Below are positions 48,108-64,000 of a stretch of 64,000 nucleotides of DNA, piece after piece. The translations under genes and the position numbers were made by a program. The stretch spans positions 954,001 to 1,018,000 of the forward strand of contig NZ_LR732707.1 in NCBI RefSeq assembly GCF_902506555.1. Direction: 5' to 3'. Source of the stretch: Sphingorhabdus sp. 109. Its GTDB lineage: Bacteria > Pseudomonadota > Alphaproteobacteria > Sphingomonadales > Sphingomonadaceae. The stretch's first letter is position 1. Every line of letters begins with the position of its first letter. Below the pieces are notes generated by a model that had not been told where the DNA came from, made no database searches, and saw only the letters and a program-made list of their open reading frames with translations.

Positions 48108-51100
48108 TTGCGCCGACATAAAGACAAGATCGTGCACTCGCCGTCTGATTTGGTTCGATATCTGGGGTGTGCCTATGCCACCACTCTAGATTTGCTGCGC
48201 ATGACCGATCCGGAAAAAGCACCTAACCGCGCAGAAGACGATGCCATGGCAAAGCTAGTCCAAGAGGCTGGACTGGATCATGAAGATAATTACCGACAGA
48301 AATTGGCAAAAGATGGAACTCTGGTCGAAATCCCCGGCGATGGTTCGCTTGAAACCCGCGCCCGTTTAACTCGCGAGGCAATGGAAACTGGCGCCCGCAC
48401 AATCTTTCAGGCGGCGTTCCTCCAAAATCAATGGAGCGGCTTCGCTGACTTTTTGATCCGTGTCGAGAAGCCGTCTGATTTAGGGCAGTGGTCTTACGAA
48501 CCAGTTGATACCAAGCTCGCCAAGTCAGCAAAAGCATCTCACATCGTTCAGCTCGGTCTTTATGCCCGGATGATCGCCGCTTTGCAGGGATGCAATCCAG
48601 AACGCGTCCATGTCGAGCTCGGGGATGGAAGACGCGAAAGCTTTCGAATGGTCGACTTTGATCATGTTCTTGGAAACGCTATCGGCCGCTACCTATCCTT
48701 TGTAGAAACAGGAGCGGAGAAAAGCTCGCCAGAACCCTGCGCTGCATGCTCATTATGCCCATGGCGGGATCACTGTGCTTCAATATGGGAGGAAGAAGAT
48801 CACCTCTCCCGCATAGCCGGACTAGGCAAACCACAAGCGCAAAAGCTCCGCGATGCCGGGATTTTAAGCGCAACTGCTCTTGCCAGTTCGCCTGATGATA
48901 CGCGAATTGCGCGCATGGCACCTGCAACTTTTGCAAAATTGCAAGCGCAGGCCCGTTTACAGATTGCCCGATGGCAGGGCGGCGAACCCGTAGTCGAAAC
49001 GCTCGAACTGGAAGATGGCCGCGGCTTTGCCAATTTGCCCCAGCCACATGCCGCAGATTTATTCTTCGACCTAGAAGGTGATCCACTGGAAGAAGGCGGT
49101 CTCGATTATCTATGGGGTGTCCATTACAGGGATGGCGGCAAGCCCGAATTCCGGTTCCGCTGGGGCCATGATCATGCGGCAGAACGCCTAGCGTTTGAAG
49201 ATACAGTGGACTGGATTGCCCAGCATCTGGATGCCAACCCTGGCGCTCATATCTACCATTATGCTCCCTACGAGATTACATCCCTTCGGCGGCTTTCCAC
49301 TTTGCATGCCAGCCGCGAGGAAGTTTTGGATAATTTGCTTCGTCAGCGTCGTTTCGTCGACCTCTATGCAGTATTGCGGCAGGCAATTCGCACATCAGAA
49401 CCCAACTTGTCACTCAAAACGATGGAAATATTTTTTGCCGAAGCGCGCGATGGTGATGTCACCAAAGCGGATCAATCAATCATCGAATATAAAAGCTGGA
49501 AGGTGACCGGCGAAGACGCCATTTTACAGGGTATTTTGGAGTATAATAAGGTCGATTGCGAAAATACCGAAGCGCTGAGGGATTGGCTCATAGAGCTTCG
49601 GACACCGGACCTTCCATGGAGAGCTTCTGGCCCTGCCGTTCCCGTGACGGATGACAAGACAGAGGCGCGCGTGGAGGCAGAGTTGCGATCACAGCGATTG
49701 ATCGAAGCTATTCATGCTGGAAAAATTCCTGAGAGCGAGGAGGGCAGGGCGCTTGTGGGTCATCTTACCCAGTTCCACCGCCGCGCCGATAAGCCTGCTT
49801 TCTGGTCGATGTTTGACCGCTGCGAGCATGAACCCCATGAATTAGTGGAAGATGGCGAATGTATTGGAGCGATCACGCCGGATATTGACTCTGAGGGCAA
49901 CTGGCAGCGAGTAGAGAAGCGGAGCACTGTCGCTAGTTACCGTTTCCCTCCTCAAGACAGTAAGCTGCGTGAAGGAGCAGCCGTGCTCCATGCGCCCACG
50001 CTTCAGAGAGTCGGCACAATTATCGCTCTGGATTGCGAAGCGGGGACGGTCGAAATCAAGCGCGGTAACAGCGCAAAAGGCTTTTGGCCGCTGGACGGCT
50101 CTTTGATCCCGGAACCTACAGTGCCAAACGCGATACTGGTAGCTGCGGTGCGCCGGGTCGCAATGGCCTGGGCCGGCATAGACGAAGACCAGTGGCTGAA
50201 CGGCTGCGTCGACCCTGATGGTCTTACAACTGATGTTAGCGGACTGCCCGACGCGCAGCCTTACCGTGCGCTACTTGATATCATTGAACGGAAGAAGCCT
50301 CGACTGCAAGACTGGCAGGGCGGCGGTCTGGTGCAAGAAGGTGAAAGCTTGATCGAGGCCGCAACTCTGCGCTGCCTTGCGATGGACAACACAACGCTAT
50401 TTATTCAGGGGCCTCCCGGCACCGGCAAAACATTTACGAGCGCTCACGTGATTTGCTCGCTGATTGTTGCTGGCAAGCGCGTGGGCGTGTCGAGCAACAG
50501 CCATAAGGCAATCAACAATCTACTTGCTAAGGTTGAGGATGTCGCCGAGGAAACCGGGCTTTCCTTTTCCGGCGTCAAGAAATGCACGCGCGGTAATGAG
50601 GATCAGCGTTTAAATGGGCGTGTCATTACCGATGTGGAAAGCGCTAGTGACGTTCACGACTATTTTCCTGATCTAGTGGGCGGCACCGCTTGGCTATTCG
50701 CCGACAAGGGTTTCGACCAGGAGTTCGATTATCTCTTTGTCGATGAAGCGGGACAGGTCTCACTCGGTCATCTTTTGGCTATGGGTTCGGCGGCGAAAAA
50801 CATTGTTCTCGTGGGCGATCAGATGCAGCTGGCGCAACCGATACAAGGCTCGCATCCCGGCGAAAGCGGACTTTCAGCTTTGGATTATCTATTACAGGGA
50901 GACGCGACCGTTGCACCGGACAAGGGTATCCTCCTAGACACAAGTTGGAGAATGCACCCTAAAATATGTAGCTTCATCTCGGAAGCCGTCTACGACGGAC
51001 GGCTGAAAGCGCACCCTGACTGCGGGCGGCAGCGCCTGCATCTGGACCAGGGACATGACCCGGCGATAGCTGAACAAGGTCTGCGATTTGTGCCGATGGA

Positions 51101-51551
51101 TCATATCGGTTGCGGCCAGCGCTGCGATATCGAAGTAGAGCGCGTGAAGGAGCTAGCAACCGGCTTGCTCGGCACCAAATTTACGAGACGAGAAGGCAGC
51201 AGCGGAAAAATAGGTTGGGACAATATTCTAATCGTTGCGCCATATAATATGCAGGTAAACGCACTCGCAGCTTCACTCCCCGCTGCCGCACGAGTGGGCA
51301 CGGTGGACCGTTTCCAAGGGCAGGAAGCAGAAGTAGTAATTGTCAGTCTCACAACCTCGACGCCCGAAGATTTGCCGCGCCATATCGAGTTCTTTTATTC
51401 CAAGAATCGGATTAATGTCGCGATTAGCCGTGCTCGCACGCTGGCGTTAATCTTGGCCAATCCCAAGCTGTTGGAACTAGACGCAAAAACTGTCGATCAT
51501 CTAAGGTTGGTAAATACGCTCGCCTGGGTGGAAGAGGAGGGAAGCAAGTGA
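48108..51551 (+). CDS. RecB-like nuclease / DEDD exonuclease / SF1 helicase fusion (TM0106 type)
   Basis: About 1,147 residues in three parts. The N-terminus is a RecB-like nuclease (TM0106 family) with an iron-sulphur-type cysteine cluster EPCAACSLCPWRDHC (about 208-222). A middle RNase H-like exonuclease domain shows DLFFDLEGDPLEEGG and VDCENTEALRDWL. The C-terminal half is a Dna2/Upf1-like SF1 helicase: GPPGTGKTFTSA (about 768), DEAGQ (about 879), LVGDQMQLAQP, VGTVDRFQGQEAEVVIVS and NVAISRA. It probably resects or degrades DNA. The start is placed at TTG 48108 behind GGGGG; TTG 48075 is the alternative. Its stop overlaps the GTG of the small frameshifted ORF. Confidence 0.88.
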   Translation: MRRHKDKIVHSPSDLVRYLGCAYATTLDLLRMTDPEKAPNRAEDDAMAKLVQEAGLDHEDNYRQKLAKDGTLVEIPGDGSLETRARLTREAMETGARTIFQAAFLQNQWSGFADFLIRVEKPSDLGQWSYEPVDTKLAKSAKASHIVQLGLYARMIAALQGCNPERVHVELGDGRRESFRMVDFDHVLGNAIGRYLSFVETGAEKSSPEPCAACSLCPWRDHCASIWEEEDHLSRIAGLGKPQAQKLRDAGILSATALASSPDDTRIARMAPATFAKLQAQARLQIARWQGGEPVVETLELEDGRGFANLPQPHAADLFFDLEGDPLEEGGLDYLWGVHYRDGGKPEFRFRWGHDHAAERLAFEDTVDWIAQHLDANPGAHIYHYAPYEITSLRRLSTLHASREEVLDNLLRQRRFVDLYAVLRQAIRTSEPNLSLKTMEIFFAEARDGDVTKADQSIIEYKSWKVTGEDAILQGILEYNKVDCENTEALRDWLIELRTPDLPWRASGPAVPVTDDKTEARVEAELRSQRLIEAIHAGKIPESEEGRALVGHLTQFHRRADKPAFWSMFDRCEHEPHELVEDGECIGAITPDIDSEGNWQRVEKRSTVASYRFPPQDSKLREGAAVLHAPTLQRVGTIIALDCEAGTVEIKRGNSAKGFWPLDGSLIPEPTVPNAILVAAVRRVAMAWAGIDEDQWLNGCVDPDGLTTDVSGLPDAQPYRALLDIIERKKPRLQDWQGGGLVQEGESLIEAATLRCLAMDNTTLFIQGPPGTGKTFTSAHVICSLIVAGKRVGVSSNSHKAINNLLAKVEDVAEETGLSFSGVKKCTRGNEDQRLNGRVITDVESASDVHDYFPDLVGGTAWLFADKGFDQEFDYLFVDEAGQVSLGHLLAMGSAAKNIVLVGDQMQLAQPIQGSHPGESGLSALDYLLQGDATVAPDKGILLDTSWRMHPKICSFISEAVYDGRLKAHPDCGRQRLHLDQGHDPAIAEQGLRFVPMDHIGCGQRCDIEVERVKELATGLLGTKFTRREGSSGKIGWDNILIVAPYNMQVNALAASLPAAARVGTVDRFQGQEAEVVIVSLTTSTPEDLPRHIEFFYSKNRINVAISRARTLALILANPKLLELDAKTVDHLRLVNTLAWVEEEGSK

Positions 51552-51854
51552 GAGAAGAACAATTCAAGGCGTGGCTAAAGGAAACCGGGAAATCCGAAGG
51601 CACGATTTCTTCCCAGATGAGCAAGGTCTGGAAGCTGGACCGCTATTATGGCGATCTTGATGAACATATCCGTAGTGGAACAATCGAAAAGATAAAAACG
51701 CGGCTATCTAATCCTGACAGCATTCCGTCGGAACTAGGAATCGGGGACCGCCAACACCTACCGACATCGCTCCGCTATTCAAGCCCGTCTTAGCGGCTTG
51801 TTGCAATCGTCAATATTCGAGTTACAACCACTTGCAAATCAAGTGGTTTCTTGA
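51548..51854 (+). pseudogene. Small ORF with an apparent frameshift at a GGGG run
   Basis: The GTG at 51548 overlaps the helicase stop (GTGA). Frame one gives 81 residues and stops at 51793: MREEQFKAWLKETGKSEGTI, then KLDRYYGDLDEH, then a low-quality tail. Dropping one G at the GGGG run 51743-51746 opens the next frame up to a stop at 51852-51854. That adds TANTYRHRSAIQARLSGLL, a plausible helical continuation with a TYRxxxxIxA pattern. The restored protein would be about 101 residues. Short helical proteins of this kind, resembling a core-binding SAM-like domain, sit next to restriction genes. It is either a decayed gene, a sequencing error or a translational frameshift. Confidence 0.6.
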
Positions 51855-51987
51855 CTTTTCATTTTCATGAATAGAATTAATTGACTCAATAACGGCTCCA
51901 CAAGAGAGGGGATTGGAATGGCTCACGAAATTAGAGTGTCGCTATTTTTTGGCCTTCTTTCAGGTTTTTGAGAAAGCGGATGATTAG

Positions 51988-54900
51988 ATGAACAGCCAGG
52001 CATTTTTCGAATCTCCGATTCTCAATTCGCCGTATGAGGAGCCAGGCCAGCACTGGCAGCTGAGCGATTCTGGCCAGCCTACTGGTCAGATCGAACCGGG
52101 ACGGCGCAAGAGCGATCTGACTACACCCATACCCAAGGCAAAAACGACGCGCGGGAATGTTGCTTCTCAACAGGATCTCTATGCCGATGCCAAGGGCGAG
52201 ATCTACGATCCTACCGAAACCATCAACGGTATCCGGTCTGCAGTGCAAAGTTGGCGTGCTTTGCCGGAGAGCCAGTGGCAGGTTACGCCCACCACGGCTC
52301 GTTTGCTTCGCCACTGGCGCACGCATAAATTCACCAATCAGACACCGTTTTTCTGCCAGGTTGAGGCCGTCGAAACGGTTATTTGGCTTACGGAAGTTGT
52401 TGGTCGTCCAAGCCGCAAGGGCGGTAAGGTAAAGCTCGCGACTGGCCAGAGGTTTTGGGACCATCTGTTTGCAGCCAATGAAGCCTCGAACCCTGACTTG
52501 ATCCGGCTTGCGCTCAAGCTAGCGACCGGGGCAGGCAAAACGACGGTGATGGCGATGCTCATCGCTTGGCATACGCTAAATGCTGTGCGGCATCCAGGAT
52601 CCAAGAAATACTCTAAGGGCTTTTTGGTTATCGCGCCCGGCATTACCATCCGAGATCGGTTGCAGGTGCTGCAACCCAATGATCCGAACAGCTATTATAA
52701 GAGCCGCGAGATTGTCCCGGAGGATATGCTGCGCGATCTGGGGCAGGCGAAAATTGTCATTACCAACTTTCATGCCTTCAAGAAAAAAGATGAGGTGTCA
52801 CTCAACAAGGTCCAACAGGCAGCGCTCAATACCACCCCTAAACAGGAGAGCGATGGCGCAATGCTACGCCGCGTCGCAGGGCCGTTGCTCGGAATGAAAA
52901 ATGTCGTCGTTCTGAACGATGAGGCGCACCACTGTTATCGTGAACGCCCGCTATCACCGGAGGAAGAAAAGACTCTGAAAGGTGATGACAAGGCCGAGGC
53001 CAAGGAAAACAACGAAGCCGCGCGCCTTTGGATTTCAGGGTTGGAAACTGTCAAGCGCACGCTCGGCCTCAATATGGTATATGATCTGTCCGCCACGCCT
53101 TTCTTCCTCAAGGGTTCAGGCTATCGAGAAGGATCGCTGTTTGGCTGGGTGATGAGCGATTTCAGCCTGATGGATGCGATTGAGTGCGGTATCGTAAAAT
53201 TGCCGCGCGTTCCCATTATCGACAATGTGGAACAGGGCGAGATGCCGATGTTCCGAAATCTGTGGGAACATATCGGCAAGAAATTGCCAAAGAAGGGCCG
53301 CTGCAAATCGGGCTTTGACGATCCACAAAAATTACCGAACGAATTGCTTTCCGCGATCGACGCGCTCTACGGCCATTACGTTAAAACCTTTGATGCTTGG
53401 AAGGAGTCCAATCTGGGCGTCGAACCAGTATTCATCGTTGTTTGCAACAATACAGCTACGTCAAAGCTGGTGCACGATTATATCGCCGGTTACCCAGTAT
53501 CGACGAAAGATGGCGGCAGCCAGCTGGTCGCTGGCAAATGCAAGCTCTTTCAGAATTTCGACCCCGATGGTGTGGCCCTGCCCAAGATGCGGACCCTTTT
53601 GATTGACAGCATGCAGCTGGAAAGCGGTGAGGCGGTCAGCGCGGAATTTAAAGCCGCAGCGGCTGGTGAGATCGATCGGTTCAAGGACGAGATGGTCCAG
53701 CGCACCGGCGACCGCGCGTCGGCTGAAAAGATCGACGATGCCGACATATTGCGGGAAGTGATGAACACTGTCGGCAGACCCGGTCAACTGGGTGGGGCAA
53801 TCCGCTGCGTGGTTTCGGTGTCCATGCTCACAGAAGGCTGGGATGCGAATACTGTTACCCATGTGCTTGGCGTGCGGGCATTCGGCACGCAGCTATTATG
53901 TGAGCAGGTTATTGGTCGCGCACTACGCCGCGTCTCTTACGAACTGAACGCAGATGACCGGTTCGGCGTTGAATATGCTGACATCTTCGGCATCCCGTTT
54001 GATTTCACGGCGCAGGCCGTTCAAGCCGATATAAAACCGCCTCCGCCGATGATCAGGGTGGAAGCAATTAGTCCGGAACGTGACGACGTCGAAATTCGTT
54101 TTCCACGCGTAGAGGGCTATCGCACCGAATTGCCGCGGGACACGCTGCAGGCCGAATTCACCGAAGATTCTACCCTGGAGCTGAACCCTGACCTGGTCGG
54201 TGCGACCGAGACGATCAGTTCTGGTATCATCGGTGAAACAGCGGACATGACGCTGGACTATCTCGCCGATATGCGCCCCGCCACAATTCAGCTGCGCCTT
54301 GCTGACCGTATCGTGCGACGGCAGTTTACCCAGGATGGTGAGGTGCCCAATCCCGCGCTTATTCTCGAAATGCGCAAGATTGTTCGCCGCTGGATGGCGG
54401 AACATCTGGTATGCAAGGGCAGCACACAGCCGGCGCAATTGCTCTATTACGATATTGCTGACCGGGTCGCGGAGCGAATTAAGCGCGCGATCACTCGTGG
54501 GACGCAAGGGGAAAATCGAGTGATTGCCTTGCTCGATCCCTATAATCGCGAAGGCTCCACATCCCATGTCGGGTTTAACACCAGCCAGGACAGATACGAG
54601 ACCGGTAAAAAATGTCATATCAACTATGCAATCGCGGATAGCGATTGGGAACTGGAGTTCTGCCGCGTCGCCGACCAACATCCGCGCGTTCTCGCCTGGG
54701 TGAAGAACCACAATCTTGGTTTCGAAGTGCCTTACCGCACCGGCGGGGAAGCCCGGCGCTATCGCCCTGATTTTATACTGCAGATCGATGACGGGAAAGG
54801 CGCCGAGGACCCGCTGAACCTCGTCGTGGAAATCAAGGGTTTTCGAAATGAAGACGCCAAGGACAAGGCCGATACGATGGCAAGCTATTGGGTTCCGGGC

Positions 54901-55029
54901 GTGAACAATCTCGGCACGATGGGACGCTGGGGCTTTGCCGAGTTTACCGAGAAATGGACGATGCAGACGGAATTCGAAGCCGTTATAAAAGAGTGGATTA
55001 AAACCGTAGGTGAGGGGGATTTACGATGA
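51988..55029 (+). CDS. Type III-like restriction endonuclease subunit (Res; DEAD/DEAH helicase-nuclease)
   Basis: Encodes 1,013 residues. The SF2 helicase motifs are LATGAGKTTVMAM (about 178), NDEAHHCYRE (Walker B, about 310), DLSATPFFLKGSG (about 367), SVSMLTEGWDANTVTHVLG and EQVIGRALRR (motif VI). The C-terminal domain carries YRPDFILQID...VVEIKGFRNEDAKDK (about 923-955), a PD-(D/E)xK endonuclease site. The N-terminus (MNSQAFFESPILNSPYEEPGQHW) matches the BPTD_3080-like restriction endonuclease family. In type III systems Res needs Mod for recognition; the Mod-like gene lies two genes downstream in the same run. Its stop overlaps the next ATG (ATGA). Confidence 0.9.
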   Translation: MNSQAFFESPILNSPYEEPGQHWQLSDSGQPTGQIEPGRRKSDLTTPIPKAKTTRGNVASQQDLYADAKGEIYDPTETINGIRSAVQSWRALPESQWQVTPTTARLLRHWRTHKFTNQTPFFCQVEAVETVIWLTEVVGRPSRKGGKVKLATGQRFWDHLFAANEASNPDLIRLALKLATGAGKTTVMAMLIAWHTLNAVRHPGSKKYSKGFLVIAPGITIRDRLQVLQPNDPNSYYKSREIVPEDMLRDLGQAKIVITNFHAFKKKDEVSLNKVQQAALNTTPKQESDGAMLRRVAGPLLGMKNVVVLNDEAHHCYRERPLSPEEEKTLKGDDKAEAKENNEAARLWISGLETVKRTLGLNMVYDLSATPFFLKGSGYREGSLFGWVMSDFSLMDAIECGIVKLPRVPIIDNVEQGEMPMFRNLWEHIGKKLPKKGRCKSGFDDPQKLPNELLSAIDALYGHYVKTFDAWKESNLGVEPVFIVVCNNTATSKLVHDYIAGYPVSTKDGGSQLVAGKCKLFQNFDPDGVALPKMRTLLIDSMQLESGEAVSAEFKAAAAGEIDRFKDEMVQRTGDRASAEKIDDADILREVMNTVGRPGQLGGAIRCVVSVSMLTEGWDANTVTHVLGVRAFGTQLLCEQVIGRALRRVSYELNADDRFGVEYADIFGIPFDFTAQAVQADIKPPPPMIRVEAISPERDDVEIRFPRVEGYRTELPRDTLQAEFTEDSTLELNPDLVGATETISSGIIGETADMTLDYLADMRPATIQLRLADRIVRRQFTQDGEVPNPALILEMRKIVRRWMAEHLVCKGSTQPAQLLYYDIADRVAERIKRAITRGTQGENRVIALLDPYNREGSTSHVGFNTSQDRYETGKKCHINYAIADSDWELEFCRVADQHPRVLAWVKNHNLGFEVPYRTGGEARRYRPDFILQIDDGKGAEDPLNLVVEIKGFRNEDAKDKADTMASYWVPGVNNLGTMGRWGFAEFTEKWTMQTEFEAVIKEWIKTVGEGDLR

Positions 55030-56015
55030 CCAAATTCAACAAAATTGCAATTATCAACACTGGATGGTCTGACGATTTTCAAGGGGCTGAAGTCAAAGGC
55101 GATTTTGGTTATTTGGATGGACGCGTTGGTCATGAGAAATTCAACTTCCTGCCGGACTCTGAAGGCATCTTTTATGGTTACGCTCCACCGTTAGGCGGGA
55201 GCAGCAGTCCGCCAATGCCTGAAGATCCCGCTGGATGGCTGGTCTTTTTTGTTTCTAAGAAACCCGGCAAGGCCGGCCTCTATCTCGTGGGCTGGTATGA
55301 AGATGCAAATTTTGAAAGAGGCTATGAAACTCGCCCAGATGCCGACAAGCTTGAACTAGATTCCGACGGAGGTCGGTTTGGATATACGGTATCTTCGCAC
55401 AATGCCCGGCATGTTCCACTACTTATGCGAAAGAGAAAAGTGCGCGGCGATAATTTGAAACGGTCTTATGCATATCTTCGCGGCGGGAACGACGATGACG
55501 CTTGGCGCAAGGATATGGCGCAGCAACTTCTGCGATACAGGAACGAAATTCTAGCTGAATTTACGGCAGTGGAGCAGGGTGACACAGAAGCGAATGTTAC
55601 ATTCTGTGTTGATGCTACGCGGCGAAAACTGATCGAAGATAGGGCGGTTGAGATTGTCAAACAGCATTATGCGAAATGGACTTGTGAGAGCAAAGAGGCT
55701 GACAAGTGCGGTTACGACCTCTTGTTTTCGAAAAAGACCGGTGAAGTGATGCACGTAGAGGTAAAAGGAACATCGCTACCTGATCCGTGCTTCTTCATCA
55801 CTGAGAAAGAACGCTCCTATGCAGAAAAGCACTCTCACAACGATACACGTGCTCGCCAAGCCAGAGATGGCAAATGGAGGCCATTGTGGAAACTGGCAGT
55901 TGTCCCAGATGCTTTAGGTAAAAACCCCAAGCCACATATTTATACGTTTGCCGAAATGAACCGCGCTTTTGACTTAGATTGCTACGCGTTTCGCGGTAAG
56001 TTGAAAGACAATTAA
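55026..56015 (+). CDS. DUF3883 protein with a possible EVE/PUA-like N-terminal domain
   Basis: Encodes 329 residues. The C-terminal half (about 195-260) has the DUF3883/NOV_C signature: RKLIEDRAVEIVKQHY, then CGYDLLFSKKTGEVMHVEVKGTS. The D...EVK residues are in place for a PD-(D/E)xK-type nuclease. The N-terminal about 130 residues (IAIINTGWSDDF, GIFYGYAPP, AGLYLVGWYEDANFERG) resemble EVE/PUA-like modified-base-binding domains only in pattern; this is tentative. It sits between Res and Mod with overlaps on both sides (ATGA, TAATG), so it is probably stoichiometric with them. It may be a second nuclease or a modified-DNA reader. Confidence 0.78.
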   Translation: MTKFNKIAIINTGWSDDFQGAEVKGDFGYLDGRVGHEKFNFLPDSEGIFYGYAPPLGGSSSPPMPEDPAGWLVFFVSKKPGKAGLYLVGWYEDANFERGYETRPDADKLELDSDGGRFGYTVSSHNARHVPLLMRKRKVRGDNLKRSYAYLRGGNDDDAWRKDMAQQLLRYRNEILAEFTAVEQGDTEANVTFCVDATRRKLIEDRAVEIVKQHYAKWTCESKEADKCGYDLLFSKKTGEVMHVEVKGTSLPDPCFFITEKERSYAEKHSHNDTRARQARDGKWRPLWKLAVVPDALGKNPKPHIYTFAEMNRAFDLDCYAFRGKLKDN

Positions 56016-59011
56016 TGTCCAAGAATAAGAAACCCCTCCGCGTCGAAACGCTCACCCATGACGAGGCGACCCGAAAGAATGCACCCACGGCCGAACTCGA
56101 AACCTTTGTCGATGCCGAAACCAAGCGGCCGATCGAGGTCGCTTACGAGCGGCGCAATCGCGATCTCGATCCGCAGTTGGTGTGGCGGGGGAAGGATGTG
56201 GCGGACTGGTCGGACCTCGTGGTCGAGGCGCCGCCGCTCTATATCCAGGAGAAGATCCATCCCAAGGCACTGATCGAGGATCTGAAGCGCGCTAGCCAGC
56301 GCGACGAACCCGACGACGCGCCCGATCTCTTCGCCGATTTCAACGGCGTCGATCCGGAGGCGCGGACCGAGTTCTACGCGCATGACCAGCACTGGTCGAA
56401 CCGCATGATCCTGGGCGACGGGCTGAAGGTGATGGCATCGCTGGCGGAGCGCGAGAGGCTGAAGGGCCAGGTGCAGTGTATCTATATCGACCCGCCCTAT
56501 GGCATCAAGTTCAACTCCAACTTCCAGTGGTCCACCACCAGTCGCGACGTGAAGGACGGCAAGGCCGACCACCTGACGCGCGAGCCCGAGCAGGTGAAGG
56601 CCTTCCGCGACACTTGGGCCGACGGCATCCACTCCTACCTCACCTATCTGCGCGACCGCCTGACCGTGGCGAGCGACCTGTTGACAGAGAGCGGCAGCGT
56701 CTTCGTCCAGATCGGGGACGAAAATGTGCACCGTGTGCGAGCTCTCATGGATGAGGTGTTTGGCGAAGAGAATTTTGTAGGTCAGATCGGTTTCGAAAAA
56801 ACCAGCAGCACCTCAACCACAGGGTTGGCAGCAATTAGTGACTACCTAATCTGGTTTGCACGCTCCAAGCCCTCTTTGAAATTTCGATCTCCATATCAAC
56901 GCAAAGTATTGGGAGAAGCTGGAACAACCCAATATACTTGGTTTGATTTGCAGGGTGGAGAAGATCGTCGCCTCTCGTCTGAGGAAATTGCCTCAAACGC
57001 AATCAGTATTGACCGAGAAAATATTTTTGCTTGCGACAACCTTACCAGCCAGAGGCCACTACAAGGAGCCGATGTTCGAGATTTTGAATACGCTGGACGT
57101 GAGTTCAAGCCAGGCCGCGGAACCTTCAAAACCGATTTGGTCGGCCTCACAAAGTTAGCGAAATCTGGTCGCCTAAGACCAATCGGAAATAGCTTAATGT
57201 ATAAGCGTTTCTTGCGTGATTTCGATGTTGTTCCAATTGCTAACTATTGGACCGATGTGAAGATGACAGGCTTCTCCGAAGAAAAGTCATATGTCGTGCA
57301 AACGGGCCAAAAGGTCGTCCAGCGCTGTATCCTGATGACCACCGATCCTGGTGATTTAGTGCTCGATCCCACCTGCGGTTCGGGCACCACCGCCTATGTC
57401 GCCGAGCAGTGGGGGCGGCGGTGGATCACAATCGATACCAGCCGGGTCGCGCTTGCGCTTGCCCGGGCGCGGATCATGGGCGCGCGCTATCCCTGGTATC
57501 TGCTCGCCGACAGCCGCGAAGGGCAGGTGAAGGAAGGCGAGATCACCCGCACCCCGCCGCGCGACACGCCCACCCAAGGGCGCCTGCGCCAGGGCTTCGT
57601 CTACAAACGTGTGCCGCACATCACGCTCAAGAGCATCGCCAACAATGCCGAGATCGACACGATCTGGGAGGAGTATCAGGAAAAGCTCGAACCGCTGCGC
57701 GCCGAGATCAACGCCTTGCGTAGCCGGGATGGTTCTGACCCCGACCTCCCTCCCTTCGAGGAATGGACCATGCCGCGCGAACCCGGCTCACCGTGGCCCG
57801 AACCTGCCGCCAAGGCACTGGAAAAGGCGCGCAACGAGGGCGCCTCCGATGCGGTGCGCAGCAAATGGCTCGCAAAGCTGAACGAGGAACTGGGCCGTGA
57901 CTACAAACTCGATACGCTGCCCGACCATCCGGTCGATCCCTGGAACGACCCGGAGTGTGAGAAGCTGCACGCCGAATGGTGGAAGCTGCGCATCGAACGC
58001 CAGCAGGAAATCGATGCCAGCATTGCCGCCAAGGCGGACACTGAATATCTCTATGACCAGCCCTATGAGGACAAAAGTCGCGTGCGCGTCGCGGGGCCGT
58101 TCACCGTAGAAAGCCTTAGTCCCCACCGCGTCCCTGCCGTCGATGTCGACGACAGTCTGTTCGACGAGATAGAAGCGGCCGAGGGCAGGGCGACAAAAAC
58201 TGGCAGCGGCGAACGCGTGGACTTCGCAGAAATGGTGCTCGACAATCTTAAACGTTCAGGCGTCCAGCAGCGGGCAAAGGACGACAAGCTGGCGTTCGAA
58301 GCGATGAAGCTGTGGCCGGGCGAGTGGATCGTGGCCGAGGGCATCGTGCGCCAGAAATCCCTGACCGAGGCGGAAGATGATGAGGATAGCGACACAGGCC
58401 CAACCCGCCGCGCTGCGATCTTTGTTGGCCCAGAATATGGCACTGTCAGCCGCACCGCCCTGACTGCAGCCGCGCGTGAAGCGATGGATGCCGGCTTCGA
58501 CCTGCTGATTGCTGCAGCGTTCAACTTTGATGCCCATGCCAGCGAGCTGACCAAAATGGGGCCTCTCACCGTGTTGCAAGCGCGGATCAATCCTGATCTG
58601 CACATGCCCGATCTCGCCAATACCGGCGCGGGCAATCTGTTCACCGTGTTCGGGGAGCCCGACATAGTGGTCCATGATGAAGGCGATGGAGAGATCAGCA
58701 TCGAGGTGCTGGGTGTCGATATGTATAAAGGCGGTCAGATCGAAAGCGGCGACGCCGACGACATCGCCGTATGGTTTATCGACACAGATTATAATTACGA
58801 GAGCTTCTTTGTCCGCCACGCCTATTTTCCGGGCGCAAACGATCCTTACAAGGCTTTGAAAACAACGCTGAAGGCCGAGGTGGACCAGGATGCATGGGAT
58901 TCACTCAATCGCACCCGATCACGCGTGTTTGCGCGACCGAAAGATGGGCGCGTGGCCGTGAAGGTGGTGAACCATCTGGGTGATGAAGTTATGAAAGTTT
59001 TGGAGGTTTAA
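56015..59011 (+). CDS. Type III-like site-specific DNA methyltransferase (Mod), beta class
   Basis: Encodes 998 residues, longer than usual Mod proteins. Motif order is that of beta-class N6-adenine or N4-cytosine methylases: IDPPYGIKFNSNFQW (DPPY, about 159) comes first and LDPTCGSGTTAYVAEQWGRRW (AdoMet motif I, about 450) later. The segment between (about residues 237-445) is where the target recognition domain lies and has clearly lower GC than either side. The C-terminal 500 residues include a charged helical region (ERQQEIDASIAAKADTEYLYDQPY) and a domain ending DEVMKVLEV, probably Res contact surfaces. It should methylate and recognise the site for the Res subunit two genes upstream. Confidence 0.9.
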   Translation: MSKNKKPLRVETLTHDEATRKNAPTAELETFVDAETKRPIEVAYERRNRDLDPQLVWRGKDVADWSDLVVEAPPLYIQEKIHPKALIEDLKRASQRDEPDDAPDLFADFNGVDPEARTEFYAHDQHWSNRMILGDGLKVMASLAERERLKGQVQCIYIDPPYGIKFNSNFQWSTTSRDVKDGKADHLTREPEQVKAFRDTWADGIHSYLTYLRDRLTVASDLLTESGSVFVQIGDENVHRVRALMDEVFGEENFVGQIGFEKTSSTSTTGLAAISDYLIWFARSKPSLKFRSPYQRKVLGEAGTTQYTWFDLQGGEDRRLSSEEIASNAISIDRENIFACDNLTSQRPLQGADVRDFEYAGREFKPGRGTFKTDLVGLTKLAKSGRLRPIGNSLMYKRFLRDFDVVPIANYWTDVKMTGFSEEKSYVVQTGQKVVQRCILMTTDPGDLVLDPTCGSGTTAYVAEQWGRRWITIDTSRVALALARARIMGARYPWYLLADSREGQVKEGEITRTPPRDTPTQGRLRQGFVYKRVPHITLKSIANNAEIDTIWEEYQEKLEPLRAEINALRSRDGSDPDLPPFEEWTMPREPGSPWPEPAAKALEKARNEGASDAVRSKWLAKLNEELGRDYKLDTLPDHPVDPWNDPECEKLHAEWWKLRIERQQEIDASIAAKADTEYLYDQPYEDKSRVRVAGPFTVESLSPHRVPAVDVDDSLFDEIEAAEGRATKTGSGERVDFAEMVLDNLKRSGVQQRAKDDKLAFEAMKLWPGEWIVAEGIVRQKSLTEAEDDEDSDTGPTRRAAIFVGPEYGTVSRTALTAAAREAMDAGFDLLIAAAFNFDAHASELTKMGPLTVLQARINPDLHMPDLANTGAGNLFTVFGEPDIVVHDEGDGEISIEVLGVDMYKGGQIESGDADDIAVWFIDTDYNYESFFVRHAYFPGANDPYKALKTTLKAEVDQDAWDSLNRTRSRVFARPKDGRVAVKVVNHLGDEVMKVLEV
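56725..57350 (+). other. Low-GC central segment of the Mod gene (target recognition region)
   Basis: The gene's flanks are around two thirds G+C by eye, while this central part is closer to 40-47 percent, with sharp edges near both ends. The edges fall just after the DPPY-containing N-terminal block and just before the AdoMet motif I. That is where the target recognition domain of beta-class Mod proteins sits. The pattern fits replacement of the recognition domain by recombination from another genome. Confidence 0.65.
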
Positions 59012-59014
59012 TTT

Positions 59015-59521
59015 ATGGCAAATCCGTTCGGCATAGAAGCAGGGTCAACCGTGCCCAGTGGTATGGCAACTTATCACGTTATCTTGCATTCAGTTCCTAA
59101 GCCGCATCCCGCCTTTAAGACCTACTCGGGAATCTGGAAGCCCGAAGCCGGCTTAGTTCGAATATTAGGGCAGTCGGAGACCTTTACCGATGATTCCTAC
59201 GCATCCAATGCCCTTCGGATTTACGATCAGGTAAAACGTCAATTATCGCAAATTTATGGTCCACCAAAAGTAGATGAGGATGTGATCGACGATACATGGT
59301 CAGACCCGAAAGATTTCTGCATGGCATTAGAAAATGGCGGACGCAATCATGCGTGCAGATGGATGCTTGGCACTCACGATCTTACTGACGACGTGCAGCA
59401 TATTATGTTGATGATTGCGACAAATGATGGTTACGAAATGAGCCACGTGATGCTGGATTATGAATTTTCCGGCTGCGATGACGACAATGCGGGCGATGCA
59501 TATGGGCTCGATAGCCTTTGA
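59015..59521 (+). CDS. Unknown protein within the restriction-helicase gene run
   Basis: Encodes 168 residues, no signal peptide or membrane segment. The start reads MANPFGIEAGSTVPSGMATYHV. The middle has TWSDPKDFCMALENGGRNHACRWMLG, and the C-terminus is acidic (SGCDDDNAGDAYGLDSL). It begins 3 bases after the Mod stop and its own stop overlaps the TTG of the helicase gene (TTGA), so it is coupled on both sides. No family was recognised. Coupling to both neighbours suggests a specific accessory or adaptor role, which cannot be read from sequence. Confidence 0.7.
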   Translation: MANPFGIEAGSTVPSGMATYHVILHSVPKPHPAFKTYSGIWKPEAGLVRILGQSETFTDDSYASNALRIYDQVKRQLSQIYGPPKVDEDVIDDTWSDPKDFCMALENGGRNHACRWMLGTHDLTDDVQHIMLMIATNDGYEMSHVMLDYEFSGCDDDNAGDAYGLDSL

Positions 59522-61593
59522 CACTTCTGCTCGCCTCCACCTTTAACGATGCGCTAGCCATACTGAACCAGGCAGAAGCTGGAGCGGCCATGCAGGCAGC
59601 TTTGCGCTATGGTAAAGATCCGGCCGGCAACGGATTGCAGATGCATAGGATTGATGGTGCAGAAGGATTTTGGTCACTACGCGCTAACCGTGACATTCGG
59701 ATCATCCTACACAAGGATGGCGACGCGACTACACTTGCCTATGTGGATCACCATGACGACGCCTACGCATGGGCAAATCGGCGCAAAATGGTGGCACATG
59801 AGCGCACTGGCGCTATGCAAATCGTTGAGGTGGTGGAGCGGATTGAAGAAATTTCGGTAACAAATGGACCGGAGGATTACCCGCTCGACAAACCAGAAAG
59901 CCCTGTGGTTCAACCGTTTTGGGTCCTAACGGACGATGAAATGCTCGATGTCGGAGTCCCGCGCGATTGGCTGCAGCCCGTGCGCGAAATGCCAGAAGAT
60001 GATCTGGAGACGTTGTTCGATAAGCTGCCGGCCGAAGCAGCTGAAGCTCTTTATGATTTCGCAACCGGCGGCAAATTAGACGACCATATCGCAGTGCCAG
60101 CGACGCCGGGATCTAATCCCTTCGTTCATCCCGATGCACAGCGGCGATTTCGTATCCTCGACAATATCGAGGAACTTCAGGCAGCGCTGGATGCACCCTT
60201 CGAAAAATGGGCCGTGTTCCTCCACCCTGCGCAGCGCGAATTGGTCGAAAAGAAAGTCAATGGCCCAACGCGGGTGACAGGGTCCGCAGGCACCGGAAAA
60301 ACGATCGTCGCTCTCCATCGCGCAGTGCATCTGGTGCGCAATGATGATGCTGCAAATGTGCTCCTCACAACATTCTCCAAGAAACTTGCCGAAGCGTTGG
60401 AGAGTAAGCGGGATATTCTGACTGAGGCCGAACCCGAGTTGCGGAGCCGCATTGTAGTGCTTCCACTCGATCAGGCAGCCATTGAACTTTACACGAGCGT
60501 GCATTCACAGCCAAATCGAGCATCGCCGTCGCAAATTCGCGCGTTTATCAAGGAAGCGGACAAGGCGGGTCTCGGCAAAGCTTTGTCGATTGAATTCCTG
60601 TTCGAGGAGTGGGATGAACTGGTTGATGCTTGGGGCGTTTCGGACCCCGACCAGTATGCGGCCATTCCGCGAACTGGCCGCCGAACCCGCCTTGGCGCTC
60701 AGCAAAGGGAGGCCGCGTGGAGCGTATTCCACTTTGTCAGACAGCGGTTAGAAGATCGCAATCTCGTTACTTGGGCAATGATGTATGGCGCGCTCACAGA
60801 TTGGATCGGGCAGAAGGGTCTCGATCAGCTGCCCTACAGCCATATCGTGGTGGACGAGGCACAAGATCTGACGGTTGCACAAGTGCGTTTTCTTGCCCAA
60901 GCTGGCCAGAATAGAAAAGACGCTCTGTTCCTCGCTGGCGATATTGGTCAGCGTATTTTTCGATTGCCGTTCAGCTGGGCCAAACTAGGAATCGACATTC
61001 GTGGCCGAAGCCATTCGCTGAAGGTCAATTACCGGACCTCACATCAGATCAGAGCCATGGCCGATCGGCTGCTCCCACCCTCAATCACGGACATGGACGG
61101 AATAGAAGAAGGCCGGCGAGGCACTGTATCAGTGTTCGATGGCGTCGAACCAACGGTTGTCCTGGCCAAAGATGAAAATGATGAATGTGCGAAAGTCGCC
61201 GCTTGGCTTGAAAGCTGTATCGAGGCAGATATCGCGCAGTCACAAATTGGCCTCTTGGTGAGGAGCGACGGTCAATTGGGGAGGGCTAGAAATGCTGCGA
61301 AAGCGGCAGGGCTCGATCCTAGATCCGAAAACGGGGTGGCGATCATAACGATGCACGACGCAAAAGGGCTGGAATTTCGCGCCGTCGCAGCCATGGCTTG
61401 CGATGAGGACGTTTTGCCGGACCCAACGCGGCTGGCAATGATCGGCGATCCTGCGGAAATGGAAACTGCCTTTGAGACCGAGCGACATTTGCTTTACGTT
61501 GCTTGCACCCGCGCACGCGACAAATTGCTGGTTAGCGGCGTCAGCCCCGGCAGTGAGTTCATTGATGACATATTGGCCAAGGTTGCGTCATGA
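59518..61593 (+). CDS. UvrD-like SF1 helicase with N-terminal RelE/ParE-like domain
   Basis: Encodes 691 residues. Residues 1 to about 90 (FNDALAILNQAEAGAAMQAALRYGKDP..., LRANRDIRIILHKDG, LAYVDHHDDAYAWANRRK) follow the RelE/ParE toxin fold: two helices, then strands with an R-x-x-R-I-I and a final Y-V-D-H-H-D-x-A-Y strand/helix. The rest is an SF1A helicase: TGSAGTGKTIVALHRAVHL (about 255), HIVVDEAQDLTVAQVR (about 443), VNYRTSHQIR, ITMHDAKGLEFRAVA and LLYVACTRARDKLLV. The TTG start overlaps the preceding stop. It should translocate on single-stranded DNA. The toxin-like head may bind or sense ribosome or nucleic acid, or be only structural. Confidence 0.85.
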   Translation: MTLLLASTFNDALAILNQAEAGAAMQAALRYGKDPAGNGLQMHRIDGAEGFWSLRANRDIRIILHKDGDATTLAYVDHHDDAYAWANRRKMVAHERTGAMQIVEVVERIEEISVTNGPEDYPLDKPESPVVQPFWVLTDDEMLDVGVPRDWLQPVREMPEDDLETLFDKLPAEAAEALYDFATGGKLDDHIAVPATPGSNPFVHPDAQRRFRILDNIEELQAALDAPFEKWAVFLHPAQRELVEKKVNGPTRVTGSAGTGKTIVALHRAVHLVRNDDAANVLLTTFSKKLAEALESKRDILTEAEPELRSRIVVLPLDQAAIELYTSVHSQPNRASPSQIRAFIKEADKAGLGKALSIEFLFEEWDELVDAWGVSDPDQYAAIPRTGRRTRLGAQQREAAWSVFHFVRQRLEDRNLVTWAMMYGALTDWIGQKGLDQLPYSHIVVDEAQDLTVAQVRFLAQAGQNRKDALFLAGDIGQRIFRLPFSWAKLGIDIRGRSHSLKVNYRTSHQIRAMADRLLPPSITDMDGIEEGRRGTVSVFDGVEPTVVLAKDENDECAKVAAWLESCIEADIAQSQIGLLVRSDGQLGRARNAAKAAGLDPRSENGVAIITMHDAKGLEFRAVAAMACDEDVLPDPTRLAMIGDPAEMETAFETERHLLYVACTRARDKLLVSGVSPGSEFIDDILAKVAS

Positions 61594-64000
61594 CGCGGCC
61601 CTTGATGCTACACTCAGCCGATCAGCTAGAAGAGGCGGCCCAGAAAAACAAAAGCAATGCCGCTGAGCTCAAGCTAATTCTGTCAGAGCTTGCTCATCGA
61701 AGGACCAAAAAAACCAGACAGCTAGAAAAGCTCGTCCAAACCTATTTACTCGATTGTAATCGTCAAGATATTAAAGAGAAAGTGCCGAGGAATCGCGGCA
61801 AGAGAACTGTAGCAACGCCGAAAGAAAGTGATACGATGACAGAAAAGTCGTCCGAAATCGATGACACAATGCGCCGGTTTACCGAAGGTGGAGTTGCCGA
61901 ACTACGCGCGAAGTTGATTGATTTATCACGCCGTAATCCGCTCATTTCATTCAAACACGGCAGTCGATCGGCCAGCATGGTGAGGATCGTCGATGAGAGA
62001 CCCGATCTGCTGTTCGAAACAATTTCGAAAAAAGGTATGCGCTTCGAGGCCCTGCCAGATGAAGAGACGATCCCGCCGGATGAAGACACAGCTGAATTTA
62101 AGGTTGCCTATGAGCGTGCGCAGCTGACAAATGAAGCGTTCCTCGCAGAGACTGAAACATTAGGTGATGACGAGGCAGATGCCCAGCGATGGGACTCTGC
62201 GGAACGAACTCTGCGCGCTGTCGTGCGAGAAGAACTAGGACTGCCCCGACTCGATTATGGTAAAGCAATCGATGTAGCAGCCATTGCTCGAGCACATGGG
62301 TTCGATCCATCCTATGATCTCAAATCGAGCGATGATCCAATTTCAGATCATCATAAGGATGACCGCATTCGCGTTTTGTTGACGCCGAAAGAATGTGATA
62401 AACGGCTTAAAACAATTTGGGAGCGATATCGTTCACATCAACGTGAAACCGGTCTTCATACACTGTTTTTGGCCATGGGATTTGTCCAATGGTTCGATGA
62501 CAACACCGGCGATACGCCAAACTATGCACCTGCCTTATTGCTGGCCGTGGAAATCGAGCGCAAGGTTGTGCGAGGCCGGTATGAATATACCTTGTCTACG
62601 CACGACGAGGGGCTCCAAATTAATGTCGCCCTAGCCGAGAAAATGCGTCAACATTGGCAATTGGCGATGCCGGAATTACGAACAGAGGAAACTCCAGAAT
62701 CCTATTTCATTCGGTTAGAATCAGTTCTGGAAAAAGGCCACCGATTAAAACTAAGGCATTTTGCAACACTTTGCGTTTTGCCTTTTCCGCGGATGGTTTT
62801 GTGGAAGGACTTGGATCCTGATGCATGGCCCGAAAATGCGTTTGCCGGTCACTGTTTGCTTCCTGCATTGTTGGGCGCCGCACCAATGGGGGGCGATCCT
62901 TCACCTAGCGAACCTTACGATATAGATTCTCCAGAATGGTCGGACCGTGCACCGACGCTAATTCGGCCCGCAGATGCATCACAGCATAGCGCACTGATAG
63001 AAACAGCCGACGGTGCTAATCTTGCGATAGAAGGGCCACCAGGAACCGGTAAATCGGAAACTATAACCAACATAATTGCCACTGCAATCAGTCAAAATAA
63101 AAAGGTATTATTCGTTGCAGAGAAGCAAGCGGCGCTTCGCGTCGTGGCGGATCGTTTGAAGGCGAGTGGTTTAGGTGAATTAGTGTTAGAACTGCATGGC
63201 GAAAATGCCAAGCGAGATGAATTCTATCGTTCGCTTCGGGTGAGGCTGGATGCACGCGCCGAGCAACAGTCTGACAAACTAGAACTGAGACGCCGGGAAT
63301 TGACCAGCCAGCGCGATCTTCTCCGCAACTATCTGGCATTGCTTGATACGTCATTGGGCGCACTGGGACGAAAAACATACGATCTGGTCTGGCGAGAACT
63401 AATCCTGCGGGCAAATGTCAGTGAATATGCTGAGACTAATTTCAGGCAGCTCGTTACTATAAATGATGTTGCTTTGATTGATCAAACAGGCCTTATTGAG
63501 ACTCGCAGTCAGCTGACAACATATGCCAAGGCTATTGCAGCTCTGGATAACGGTCGCAATGCTCGGCCACTTTGGTTAAAGGCGCAGACCTTGCCGGTCT
63601 TCGATCAGAGTTCTCAGATTAATGCCGCTTCTAGAGCGGCAGAATCTGCTGCTGCATTTGGCGTGCGGCTTGACGAACTCAGTGCGGTTGCGGCAGTTGA
63701 TCTACCTGGACCGTGGCAAGACATTCAGCCTCTTCTCGACCAGCTAAGCATGATCGAACCGTTCGACGATCTACCAGAAGATATGGTGAAGGCTGCCTTG
63801 CGTGAACCGGAAACTGTGCGGTCTTTACTCCAAAAACAAAGTCGGTGGCGTCAGTTATATTCCCGGGCCAGCGAGGAAATGAACAATGTCAATACTGCTA
63901 ATCCCCAGACAGTTAACGCCCTCGCCAACGCATTAGCAGCTGTGACTCCGACGCCCGAGACTGCCCGCAATGCTGTGGAGAGAGCAGTTCAGTCGAAACT
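61590..64000 (+). CDS. DUF4011-type SF1 helicase (partial at window end)
   Basis: The frame is open from ATG 61590 (ATGA overlap with the previous stop) to the window edge, 803 codons, so the gene continues beyond. A basic helical head (about 1-85) precedes the DUF4011 segment ELRAKLIDLSRRNPLISFK (about 102-120). A long middle follows, then the helicase core with LAIEGPPGTGKSETITNIIA (about 480) and VLFVAEKQAALRVVADRLK. A coiled-coil-like region (LDARAEQQSDKLELRRREL...) begins before the cut. Members of this family are large AAA_11/12-type helicases with a C-terminal nuclease domain, which would lie outside the window. An alternative start at ATG 61837 would drop the head. Confidence 0.82.
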   Translation, partial: MTRPLMLHSADQLEEAAQKNKSNAAELKLILSELAHRRTKKTRQLEKLVQTYLLDCNRQDIKEKVPRNRGKRTVATPKESDTMTEKSSEIDDTMRRFTEGGVAELRAKLIDLSRRNPLISFKHGSRSASMVRIVDERPDLLFETISKKGMRFEALPDEETIPPDEDTAEFKVAYERAQLTNEAFLAETETLGDDEADAQRWDSAERTLRAVVREELGLPRLDYGKAIDVAAIARAHGFDPSYDLKSSDDPISDHHKDDRIRVLLTPKECDKRLKTIWERYRSHQRETGLHTLFLAMGFVQWFDDNTGDTPNYAPALLLAVEIERKVVRGRYEYTLSTHDEGLQINVALAEKMRQHWQLAMPELRTEETPESYFIRLESVLEKGHRLKLRHFATLCVLPFPRMVLWKDLDPDAWPENAFAGHCLLPALLGAAPMGGDPSPSEPYDIDSPEWSDRAPTLIRPADASQHSALIETADGANLAIEGPPGTGKSETITNIIATAISQNKKVLFVAEKQAALRVVADRLKASGLGELVLELHGENAKRDEFYRSLRVRLDARAEQQSDKLELRRRELTSQRDLLRNYLALLDTSLGALGRKTYDLVWRELILRANVSEYAETNFRQLVTINDVALIDQTGLIETRSQLTTYAKAIAALDNGRNARPLWLKAQTLPVFDQSSQINAASRAAESAAAFGVRLDELSAVAAVDLPGPWQDIQPLLDQLSMIEPFDDLPEDMVKAALREPETVRSLLQKQSRWRQLYSRASEEMNNVNTANPQTVNALANALAAVTPTPETARNAVERAVQSK

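What the first reader, a model, noticed from the sequence alone, without database searches (positions are those of the whole stretch)
48108..64000. Expanded type III-like restriction island with three extra helicases and a second nuclease
Order: RecB/exonuclease/SF1 helicase, small ORF, Res, DUF3883 protein, Mod, 168-residue unknown, RelE-UvrD fusion, DUF4011 helicase. From Res on, all junctions are overlaps or 3-base gaps (ATGA, TAATG, TTGA, ATGA). A normal type III system needs only Mod and Res. The tight coupling of five further genes argues for one multi-component system rather than a chance neighbourhood. The set does not match BREX, DISARM, Zorya, Druantia or Hachiman as I know them.
Basis: partly seen in the sequence, partly recalled or inferred. 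Interest (0 to 1): 0.78.

Follow-up and report, generated by a model that had tools for sequence, protein, structure and literature searches.

The report
Type III restriction operon with swappable slots
A bacterial DNA-cutting defence operon turns out to be a widespread three-gene frame (cutter, marker and a toxin-like helicase) into which unrelated defence genes are slotted, so the extra genes noticed here look like exchangeable add-ons rather than parts of one fixed machine.

Summary
Genes and junctions are as reported, with corrections. The RecB/SF1 gene and the 81-aa ORF are remnants of a separate McrBC-type module: relatives carry a long McrB-like partner where the window has a stub. The DUF4011 gene runs past the window (1945 aa, Vsr-like nuclease at its end); the island ends at a tRNA-Ser beside a truncated integrase.

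In the best 80 Mod loci (of 575 relatives), Res lies upstream in 63 of 63 with room, and RelE-UvrD downstream on the same strand in 47 of 65. Distances of Res, Mod and RelE-UvrD covary (r about 0.9). The genes between them do not persist: slot 1 (Res|Mod) exceeds 250 bases in 50 of 73 loci, slot 2 (Mod|RelE-UvrD) in 43 of 54, with unrelated cargo (BRO, GmrSD, Fic, HepT, NYN, SIR2, ABC-3C, protease-ATPase). Against close relatives, DNA homology stops at the slot borders.

So this is a three-gene type III-like frame with exchangeable cargo: a new variant of a known kind. RelE-UvrD is missing in 18 of 65 (13 changes on the Mod tree), so it is not obligatory; filled slots also occur in 3 of 9 control loci. 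I propose, untested, that RelE-UvrD is a built-in second-line toxin.

The parts
51988..55029 (+). Res: BPTD_3080-family type III-like restriction subunit (1013 aa), SF2 motor and C-terminal PD-ExK nuclease
   Evidence: NF046055 1249.3 bits against cut-off 800; Walker A at 179, DEAH 311, SATP 368, PD 927-928, ExK 948-950
55026..56015 (+). Slot-1 cargo: 329-aa NOV_C/DUF3883 protein, putative PD-(D/E)xK nuclease
   Evidence: PF13020 4.4e-10; ATGA overlap with Res, TAATG with Mod; no DNA homology in this slot in L090-L094
56015..59011 (+). Mod: beta-class DNA methyltransferase (998 aa) with variable target recognition region
   Evidence: PF01555 1.1e-30; PADLOC MTase_III 1134 bits; profile matches EcoP15I Mod 7e-21; DPPY 159, DPTCGSG 451
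56803..57313 (+). Presumed target recognition region of Mod: no DNA homology to L090 while the flanks are 91 and 84 percent identical
59015..59521 (+). Slot-2 cargo: 168-aa protein of unknown function
   Evidence: no Pfam, PADLOC or NCBIfam match at E 0.001; 60 percent identical copy in the same slot of one relative, G159
59518..61593 (+). RelE-UvrD: N-terminal RelE-superfamily domain (about 1-105) fused to an SF1A helicase (691 aa)
59518..59838 (+). RelE-superfamily domain; R55, R61, H78, H79 invariant in the 18 sequences aligned, H43 nearly so
61590..64000 (+). DUF4011 helicase with MTES_1575 nuclease, Hhe/ProA-like; continues to window-equivalent 67427 (1945 aa)
   Evidence: L002:1590-7427
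48108..51551 (+). NOT part of the frame: RecB-like/RNase H_2/SF1 helicase-nuclease of a McrBC-type module
   Evidence: TIGR03491 261.6 bits; away from any Res hit, with McrB-like and McrC-like neighbours, in G159 contig 11 and G312 contig 1
51548..51793 (+). NOT part of the frame: 81-aa stub, N-terminus of a truncated McrB-like gene
   Evidence: 49 percent identity over residues 1-77 to the partner gene in G312; tblastn match, of which only 51548 onward counts

Best explanation
It is a type III-like restriction-modification operon whose conserved frame is Res, Mod and RelE-UvrD, mostly in that order, with interchangeable cargo genes spliced between the frame genes. Mod marks the host genome at a short sequence; Mod with Res finds unmarked incoming DNA, and Res moves along and cuts it (inferred from motifs and the known type III mechanism). 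RelE-UvrD is most likely a built-in second line: the UvrD motor senses or loads on DNA ends and single strands made by Res, or on a blocked Res-Mod complex, and this frees a fused RelE-type mRNA-cleaving domain that halts translation (inferred; nothing here shows activity). No separate gene sits between the frame genes in the smallest versions, which would fit the frame proteins holding the domain in check. The cargo (here a NOV_C nuclease-like protein and a 168-aa protein, with a DUF4011/Vsr helicase-nuclease after RelE-UvrD) adds further effectors that change from strain to strain.
For: Frame: Res upstream in 63 of 63 loci with at least 4 kb, RelE-UvrD downstream on the same strand in 47 of 65 with at least 7 kb, from the 80 loci kept of 575. 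RelE-UvrD occurs with the frame in 13 named phyla. Distances covary: r 0.911, 0.916, 0.905 among 42 sets; 0 of 5000 permutations reach them. In 289 class genomes, of 16 RelE-UvrD hits outside the window 10 lie near Res and Mod, 2 beside Mod, 3 at contig ends, 1 is a distant homologue. Control: around 9 Mod-Res pairs of another type III Res family no RelE-UvrD was found (0 of 9, Fisher p 4e-5; 6 of the 9 have at least 7 kb downstream). Slots: more than 250 bases in 50 of 73 and 43 of 54 loci; the longest ORF in the slot is on the frame's strand in 40 of 50 and 42 of 43; junctions within 30 bases in 21 of 45, 29 of 46, 27 of 40 and 32 of 41. DNA homology to close relatives breaks at the slot borders. 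RelE fold. Eight of 51 loci are bare Res-Mod-RelE-UvrD; another bare case lies on a conjugative plasmid.
Against: 18 of 65 loci with room lack RelE-UvrD, scattered over the Mod tree (13 changes), so restriction probably works without it. Slot filling is not unique: 3 of 9 control loci also have more than 1 kb between Mod and Res (p 0.06). RelE similarity is weak by sequence (HigB-like_toxin 17.0 bits, cut-off 27; no solved structure below E 0.4 by phmmer), and ParE members of the fold are not RNases. The domain is hardly more conserved (mean identity to the window copy 0.49) than the stretch that links it to the motor (0.47; motor 0.52). G162 and G260 have the order Mod-Res and RelE-UvrD on the other strand. 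The 80 loci are the most similar ones, not a random draw. Covariation may partly reflect host phylogeny.
Confidence: 0.5

Rival explanations
1. RelE-UvrD is a DNA-processing helper, not a toxin: the motor unwinds DNA cut by Res so that cut phage DNA cannot be rejoined, and the RelE fold is only a binding or regulatory module.
For: SF1A motifs intact; closest solved folds of the motor are AdnA, Rep, UvrD, PcrA; the RelE superfamily includes members without RNase activity (PMC11980606, abstract and passages); the domain is hardly more conserved than the linker (0.49 against 0.47).
Against: R55, R61, H78, H79 are invariant in 18 of 18, and phmmer sets H43 and H79 against histidines of HigB, though at E 0.4 only.
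Confidence: 0.32
2. The slot genes are passive hitchhikers: the operon is a safe harbour in defence islands, and each cargo acts alone. (This can hold together with the main reading of the frame.)
For: Some cargo looks autonomous, for example a CBASS phospholipase plus nucleotidyltransferase after Mod on a Methylomagnum plasmid; GmrSD-type cargo is found in both slots; slots are filled in 3 of 9 control loci too.
Against: Same-strand cargo with many overlapping junctions; precedent of PrrC within EcoprrI, controlled by the enzyme that hosts it (PMC12707154 and PMC2610378, passages).
Confidence: 0.35
3. Chance neighbourhood in a defence island; no functional link at all, RelE-UvrD included.
For: The island lies at a tRNA-Ser with a truncated integrase and holds several modules.
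Against: Order and strand conserved across 13 named phyla, covarying distances and the 0 of 9 control.
Confidence: 0.05
4. One reading: one obligate machine made of all eight genes.
For: RecB/SF1, the frame and DUF4011 lie together in the window, Novosphingobium marinum and Croceibacterium mercuriale.
Against: Each non-frame gene is missing or replaced in nearly all of the 80 loci, and the McrB-like gene here is truncated.
Confidence: 0.04

Closest known systems
Type III RM systems with an added helicase (Murray et al. 2021, PMC8259958; whole main text read)
   Same: Type III Mod and Res plus a third, conserved helicase-like gene of unknown role; the paper's systems make m4C
   Different: Their third gene has SF2 helicase motifs, lies 5' of mod and has no nuclease motif; here it is an SF1A helicase 3' of mod fused to a RelE fold. 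The paper describes no cargo slots.
Type IC system EcoprrI with embedded PrrC, and rlo genes in Campylobacter hsd loci (passages in PMC2610378 and PMC12707154)
   Same: Toxin-like genes inserted inside an RM operon; PrrC is silenced by its RM enzyme
   Different: Type I frame; no RelE-UvrD frame gene is mentioned in the passages seen
R-M operons linked to HEPN, Fic/Doc and RhuM-like genes (PMC3710099, PMC3506569; passages)
   Same: Overlapping cargo kinds and the same proposed logic of coupled immunity and suicide
   Different: The passages seen do not describe a Res-Mod-RelE-UvrD frame or its slots
Hhe / ProA (NF042953, NF058533)
   Same: DUF4011 helicase architecture aligned over most of the model
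   Different: 1037.9 bits against 2000 and 908.4 against 1500: below both curated cut-offs
Cami1 (PDB 8phb, 8phj; titles seen)
   Same: A RelE-type domain within a larger protein, also in an immune setting (role recalled)
   Different: The partner domain is not a helicase (recalled)

Membership tests
Type III restriction-modification | Res with SF2 motor and PD-(D/E)xK nuclease | tested here: met
   motifs present
Type III restriction-modification | Beta-class Mod (motif IV before motif I) with its own recognition region, next to Res | tested here: met
Type III restriction-modification | ATP-dependent cutting about 25 bases from inversely oriented sites | not testable with these tools
   needs purified enzyme
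BPTD_3080 family restriction endonuclease (NF046055) | curated score cut-off | tested here: met
   1249.3 against 800 bits
m4C type III subgroup (Murray et al. 2021) | Mod makes m4C | not testable with these tools
   Only a lead: the paper predicts Bpe564I of Bordetella pertussis as m4C, and BPTD_3080, after which NF046055 is named, is as I recall a B. pertussis locus tag
Type III with added SF2 helicase (Murray et al. 2021) | third gene 5' of mod with SF2 motifs | tested here: not met
   the third gene is UvrD-type SF1 and lies 3' of mod
RelE superfamily toxin | RelE (BECR) fold | tested here: met
   the 50 entries listed, Z 7.9-11.6, are by title nearly all toxin-antitoxin proteins (RelE, YoeB, YafQ, HigB, ParE), with Cami1 and one insecticidal protein, Txp40, at the end
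RelE superfamily toxin | Pfam HigB-like_toxin cut-off | tested here: not met
   17.0 against 27 bits for the window copy; 17 of 18 members match at E up to 1, best 7.2e-6
RelE superfamily toxin | catalytic residues and mRNase activity | tested here: inconclusive
   R55, R61, H78, H79 conserved; weak alignment of H43 and H79 with HigB histidines; activity untested
Gabija (GajAB) | GajA partner beside a GajB-like helicase | tested here: inconclusive
   RelE-UvrD hits GajB models (best 98.2 bits); none of the 8 proteins shows GajA, but only the best 25 of 44 and 38 families are shown for Mod and RelE-UvrD
Hhe | curated score cut-off | tested here: not met
   1037.9 against 2000 bits
McrBC-type module (for RecB/SF1) | full-length McrB-like AAA_5 partner | tested here: not met
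   only an 81-aa stub in the window; long AAA_5 partners in G312, G289, G292, G159

The most novel reading that the evidence does not exclude
A restriction-gated effector platform: the Mod-Res complex acts as the common lock for a hard-wired RelE-helicase toxin and for whatever effector sits in its two or three slots, so that a phage which blocks or escapes restriction releases a second, strain-specific attack. Slots and the recognition region of Mod are exchanged by recombination in the conserved frame genes, giving a modular immune system built on type III restriction.
Probability: 0.22. Interest if true: 0.85.

Novelty: new variant of a known kind. Interest (0 to 1): 0.62.

Why it matters
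It gives a compact setting (bare frames of three genes, about 8 kb) to test the 2012 proposal that immunity proteins serve as antitoxins for linked toxins (PMC3506569, abstract and passages). It also gives a way to find new effectors: a gene sitting precisely in a slot is a candidate. And it tells annotators that RelE-UvrD, labelled only as a 3'-5' exonuclease in the two annotated records where I found it (identity checked), belongs to a restriction operon.

Tried and rejected
One machine of all genes: rejected because NOV_C, the 168-aa gene, DUF4011 and RecB/SF1 are not co-conserved. DUF4011 elsewhere in the class: 24 of 288 other genomes have it at E up to 1e-60; only two of them (G162, G260) also hold Res, and far from it. 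That search scored at most two candidates a genome; but no DUF4011 match is listed in the Res neighbourhoods mapped either. RecB/SF1 as part of the system: rejected. The McrB-like ORFs as I cut them start too early in G312 and G292, so part of the tblastn match 51221-51859 is an off-frame overlap with RecB; only 51548 onward counts. The McrC-like gene is named from its N-terminal sequence, recalled; no family scan was run on it.

A shared docking domain in slot-2 cargo: a cluster of four (L091, L092, L093, L145) looked like one; the matched part of L091 and L092 lies in another frame of the Mod 3' end by its coordinates, so I dropped it. A shared N-terminal part of about 170 residues in slot-1 proteins of the window, L093 and L152 remains.

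A third slot after RelE-UvrD: 12 of 48 loci have a same-strand ORF of 150 aa or more starting within 60 bases, 7 of them at exactly -4; but my random-position control gave 0.569, because positions inside genes pass the same test, so the control is void and I make no statistical claim.

Slot figures: the ORF chooser gave minus-strand ORFs less weight, so its strand counts (43 of 49 and 39 of 42) are biased; the unweighted recount is 40 of 50 and 42 of 43. A few slots counted as filled are only 299-427 bases long and hold no clear gene (L103, L131, L138). Cargo scans used 59 of 68 and 70 of 79 proteins of at least 80 aa; left out were 7 minus-strand and 2 short ORFs in slot 1, 3 minus-strand and 6 short ones in slot 2. 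Slot ORFs come from a simple rule, not a gene caller. Control loci: flanks are unequal (4.6-8.6 kb downstream), a tenth locus (L205) showed no Mod, and the Mod of L202 is a short ORF that may not be a type III Mod.

Searches of the Res profile (0 matches at 0.01) and of NOV_C (one match at E 0.15) against solved structures gave nothing usable; the profile of the RelE domain gave one match, a RelE toxin, at E 0.98. The fold search with the whole RelE-UvrD model (mean pLDDT 73.4) saw only the motor, so the domain was folded alone. Literature: the ten searches, judged by listed titles and starts of abstracts, and the six papers opened showed no description of a Res-Mod-RelE-UvrD operon; the library lacks most subscription papers, so this is weak evidence of novelty.

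Full report
What is there. The window's contig continues past 64000, so the run could be read to its end. On the + strand lie RecB/RNase H_2/SF1 helicase (48108-51551), an 81-aa ORF (51548-51793), Res (51988-55029), a NOV_C/DUF3883 protein (55026-56015), Mod (56015-59011), a 168-aa protein (59015-59521), RelE-UvrD (59518-61593) and a DUF4011 protein (from 61590, 1945 aa in all). A tRNA-Ser follows about 1.1 kb later, beside an ORF that matches only the arm-binding domain of an integrase: the run is the end of a genomic island.

RecB/SF1 is something else. Its relatives were sought in 40 genomes that hold Res or Mod loci: 5 had one at E up to 1e-40. In G312 and G159 it lies on another contig than the Res locus. 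There it is followed by a McrB-like AAA_5 gene and, with one more ORF between in G312, by a McrC-like gene (named from its N-terminal sequence, recalled; the two McrC-like proteins are 45 percent identical). In the window the McrB-like gene is cut to about its first 81 residues. So this is a broken McrBC-type module beside the operon. It does accompany the operon in Novosphingobium marinum and Croceibacterium mercuriale too, probably as an island neighbour.

A conserved frame. In 289 genomes drawn from the class, Res was found in 16 others at E up to 1e-30, 13 of them at 50 percent identity or more; in 10 of these 13 RelE-UvrD lies within 10 kb of Res. Two of the 10 (G162, G260) have the order Mod-Res and RelE-UvrD on the opposite strand. 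Res is upstream on the same strand in 73 of 73 loci where it is seen, and is seen in 63 of 63 with at least 4 kb of room. RelE-UvrD is downstream on the same strand in 47 of 65 loci with at least 7 kb of room, and is present in 54 of 80 in all. It occurs so in 13 named phyla; many records are metagenome bins, where contamination is possible. Pairwise distances of the three proteins covary with r 0.905-0.916 in 42 sets, and 0.891-0.895 in 34 without the nearest relatives; no permutation of 5000 reaches these values. As a control I took 10 loci of another type III Res family (NF012027-like, below its own cut-off): a Mod was found in 9, and RelE-UvrD in none (p 4e-5; 6 of the 9 have at least 7 kb downstream). 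Against an obligatory role: 18 of 65 loci lack it, scattered over the tree with 13 changes.

Slots. Between Res and Mod 50 of 73 loci have more than 250 bases, between Mod and RelE-UvrD 43 of 54; 8 of 51 loci with all three genes are bare. The longest ORF in a filled slot is on the frame's strand in 40 of 50 and 42 of 43. Junctions lie within 30 bases in 21 of 45 (Res to cargo), 29 of 46 (cargo to Mod), 27 of 40 (Mod to cargo) and 32 of 41 (cargo to RelE-UvrD), with a 4-base overlap the commonest value for the first and third. Of 59 slot-1 proteins scanned, 8 match Bro-N, 5 GmrSD_N, 4 Fic; others match HepT, PIN, NYN, BrnT, DUF4062 and more, 38 Pfam families in all, of which 25 were shown. Of 70 slot-2 proteins the matches include AAA_15/21, SIR2_2, subtilase, AAA, DUF4411, HerA and ABC-3C parts, 62 families in all, 25 shown. 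PADLOC models of defence proteins match many members too (153 and 245 families at E up to 1e-10). In annotated plasmids one locus carries a CBASS phospholipase and a nucleotidyltransferase right after Mod and no RelE-UvrD, one is bare on a conjugative plasmid, one has unnamed cargo in both slots. Slot filling also occurs in 3 of 9 control loci, so slots as such are not peculiar to this family (p 0.06).

Exchange seen directly. Compared as DNA with L090-L093, homology runs to 31-58 bases before the Res stop, is absent over slot 1, restarts at 56027 just inside Mod, breaks over about 56.8-57.3 kb (the presumed recognition region), runs to within a few bases of the Mod end and resumes at or inside RelE-UvrD. 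L097, whose contig starts at Mod, shows the same from there on. The first 750 bases of Mod are 86-93 percent identical in these five while Res is 74-76 percent, which suggests recombination through this stretch. G159 keeps the 168-aa gene (60 percent) but has GmrSD in slot 1.

RelE-UvrD. The motor has intact SF1A motifs and folds like AdnA, Rep and UvrD. Residues 1-107, folded alone (pLDDT 92.7), match RelE-superfamily toxins with Z up to 11.6. R55, R61, H78, H79 are invariant in 18 sequences, and phmmer aligns H43 and H79 with histidines of HigB, at a weak E of 0.4. I recall that such histidines and arginines matter in HigB and YoeB; no call shows this. The domain is hardly more conserved than the linker behind it (0.49 against 0.47, motor 0.52), so conservation alone does not argue for catalysis.

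Mechanism. Shown: gene content, motifs, conserved order, covariation, cargo exchange. Inferred: that Mod and Res restrict DNA as type III enzymes do; that the RelE domain cleaves mRNA; that Mod-Res or DNA ends control it. The PrrC precedent and the coupling hypothesis make this reasonable, and bare frames with no gene in either slot fit; I did not search these loci for antitoxins outside the operon. The methylated base is open: Murray et al. report m4C type III systems, including a predicted one in B. pertussis, the species after which I recall the Res family to be named.

DUF4011. In the window, L090 and L093 it follows RelE-UvrD with the same 4-base overlap; in L145, a planctomycete, a relative also follows. 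Its nearest named family, Hhe, is described by NCBIfam as an anti-phage protein; the window protein is below that cut-off. I read it as a third, lineage-specific effector position.

Verdict. It is a new variant of a known kind: a type III-like frame with a toxin-fold helicase and exchangeable cargo.

Noticed in passing
window 42446-47764: A 1772-aa protein with a sacsin-type N-terminal ATPase domain (NF047352) and a weak C-terminal NOV_C match; no relative in the 80 Mod loci.
   Followed up: partly
L002:8027-8664 (window-equivalent 68027-68664): ORF with only the arm-binding domain of an integrase next to a tRNA-Ser: island border.
   Followed up: partly
window 48108-51793: McrBC-type module reduced to its helicase-nuclease and an 81-aa McrB-like stub.
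   Followed up: yes
L208:12964-15472 (plasmid NZ_AP019789.1): Genes annotated as CBASS phospholipase and nucleotidyltransferase sit directly after Mod on the same strand, where RelE-UvrD would be.
   Followed up: partly
L182 (G190:C4): Mod and RelE-UvrD side by side; the Res search at E 1e-30 found no Res in this genome.
   Followed up: no
window 56027-56800: First 750 bases of Mod are more conserved between the window and L090-L093 and L097 (86-93 percent DNA identity) than Res or the rest of Mod.
   Followed up: partly
window 55026-56015, L093:8910-9995, L152:8973-9995: Slot-1 proteins share an N-terminal part of about 170 residues, possibly an adaptor.
   Followed up: no
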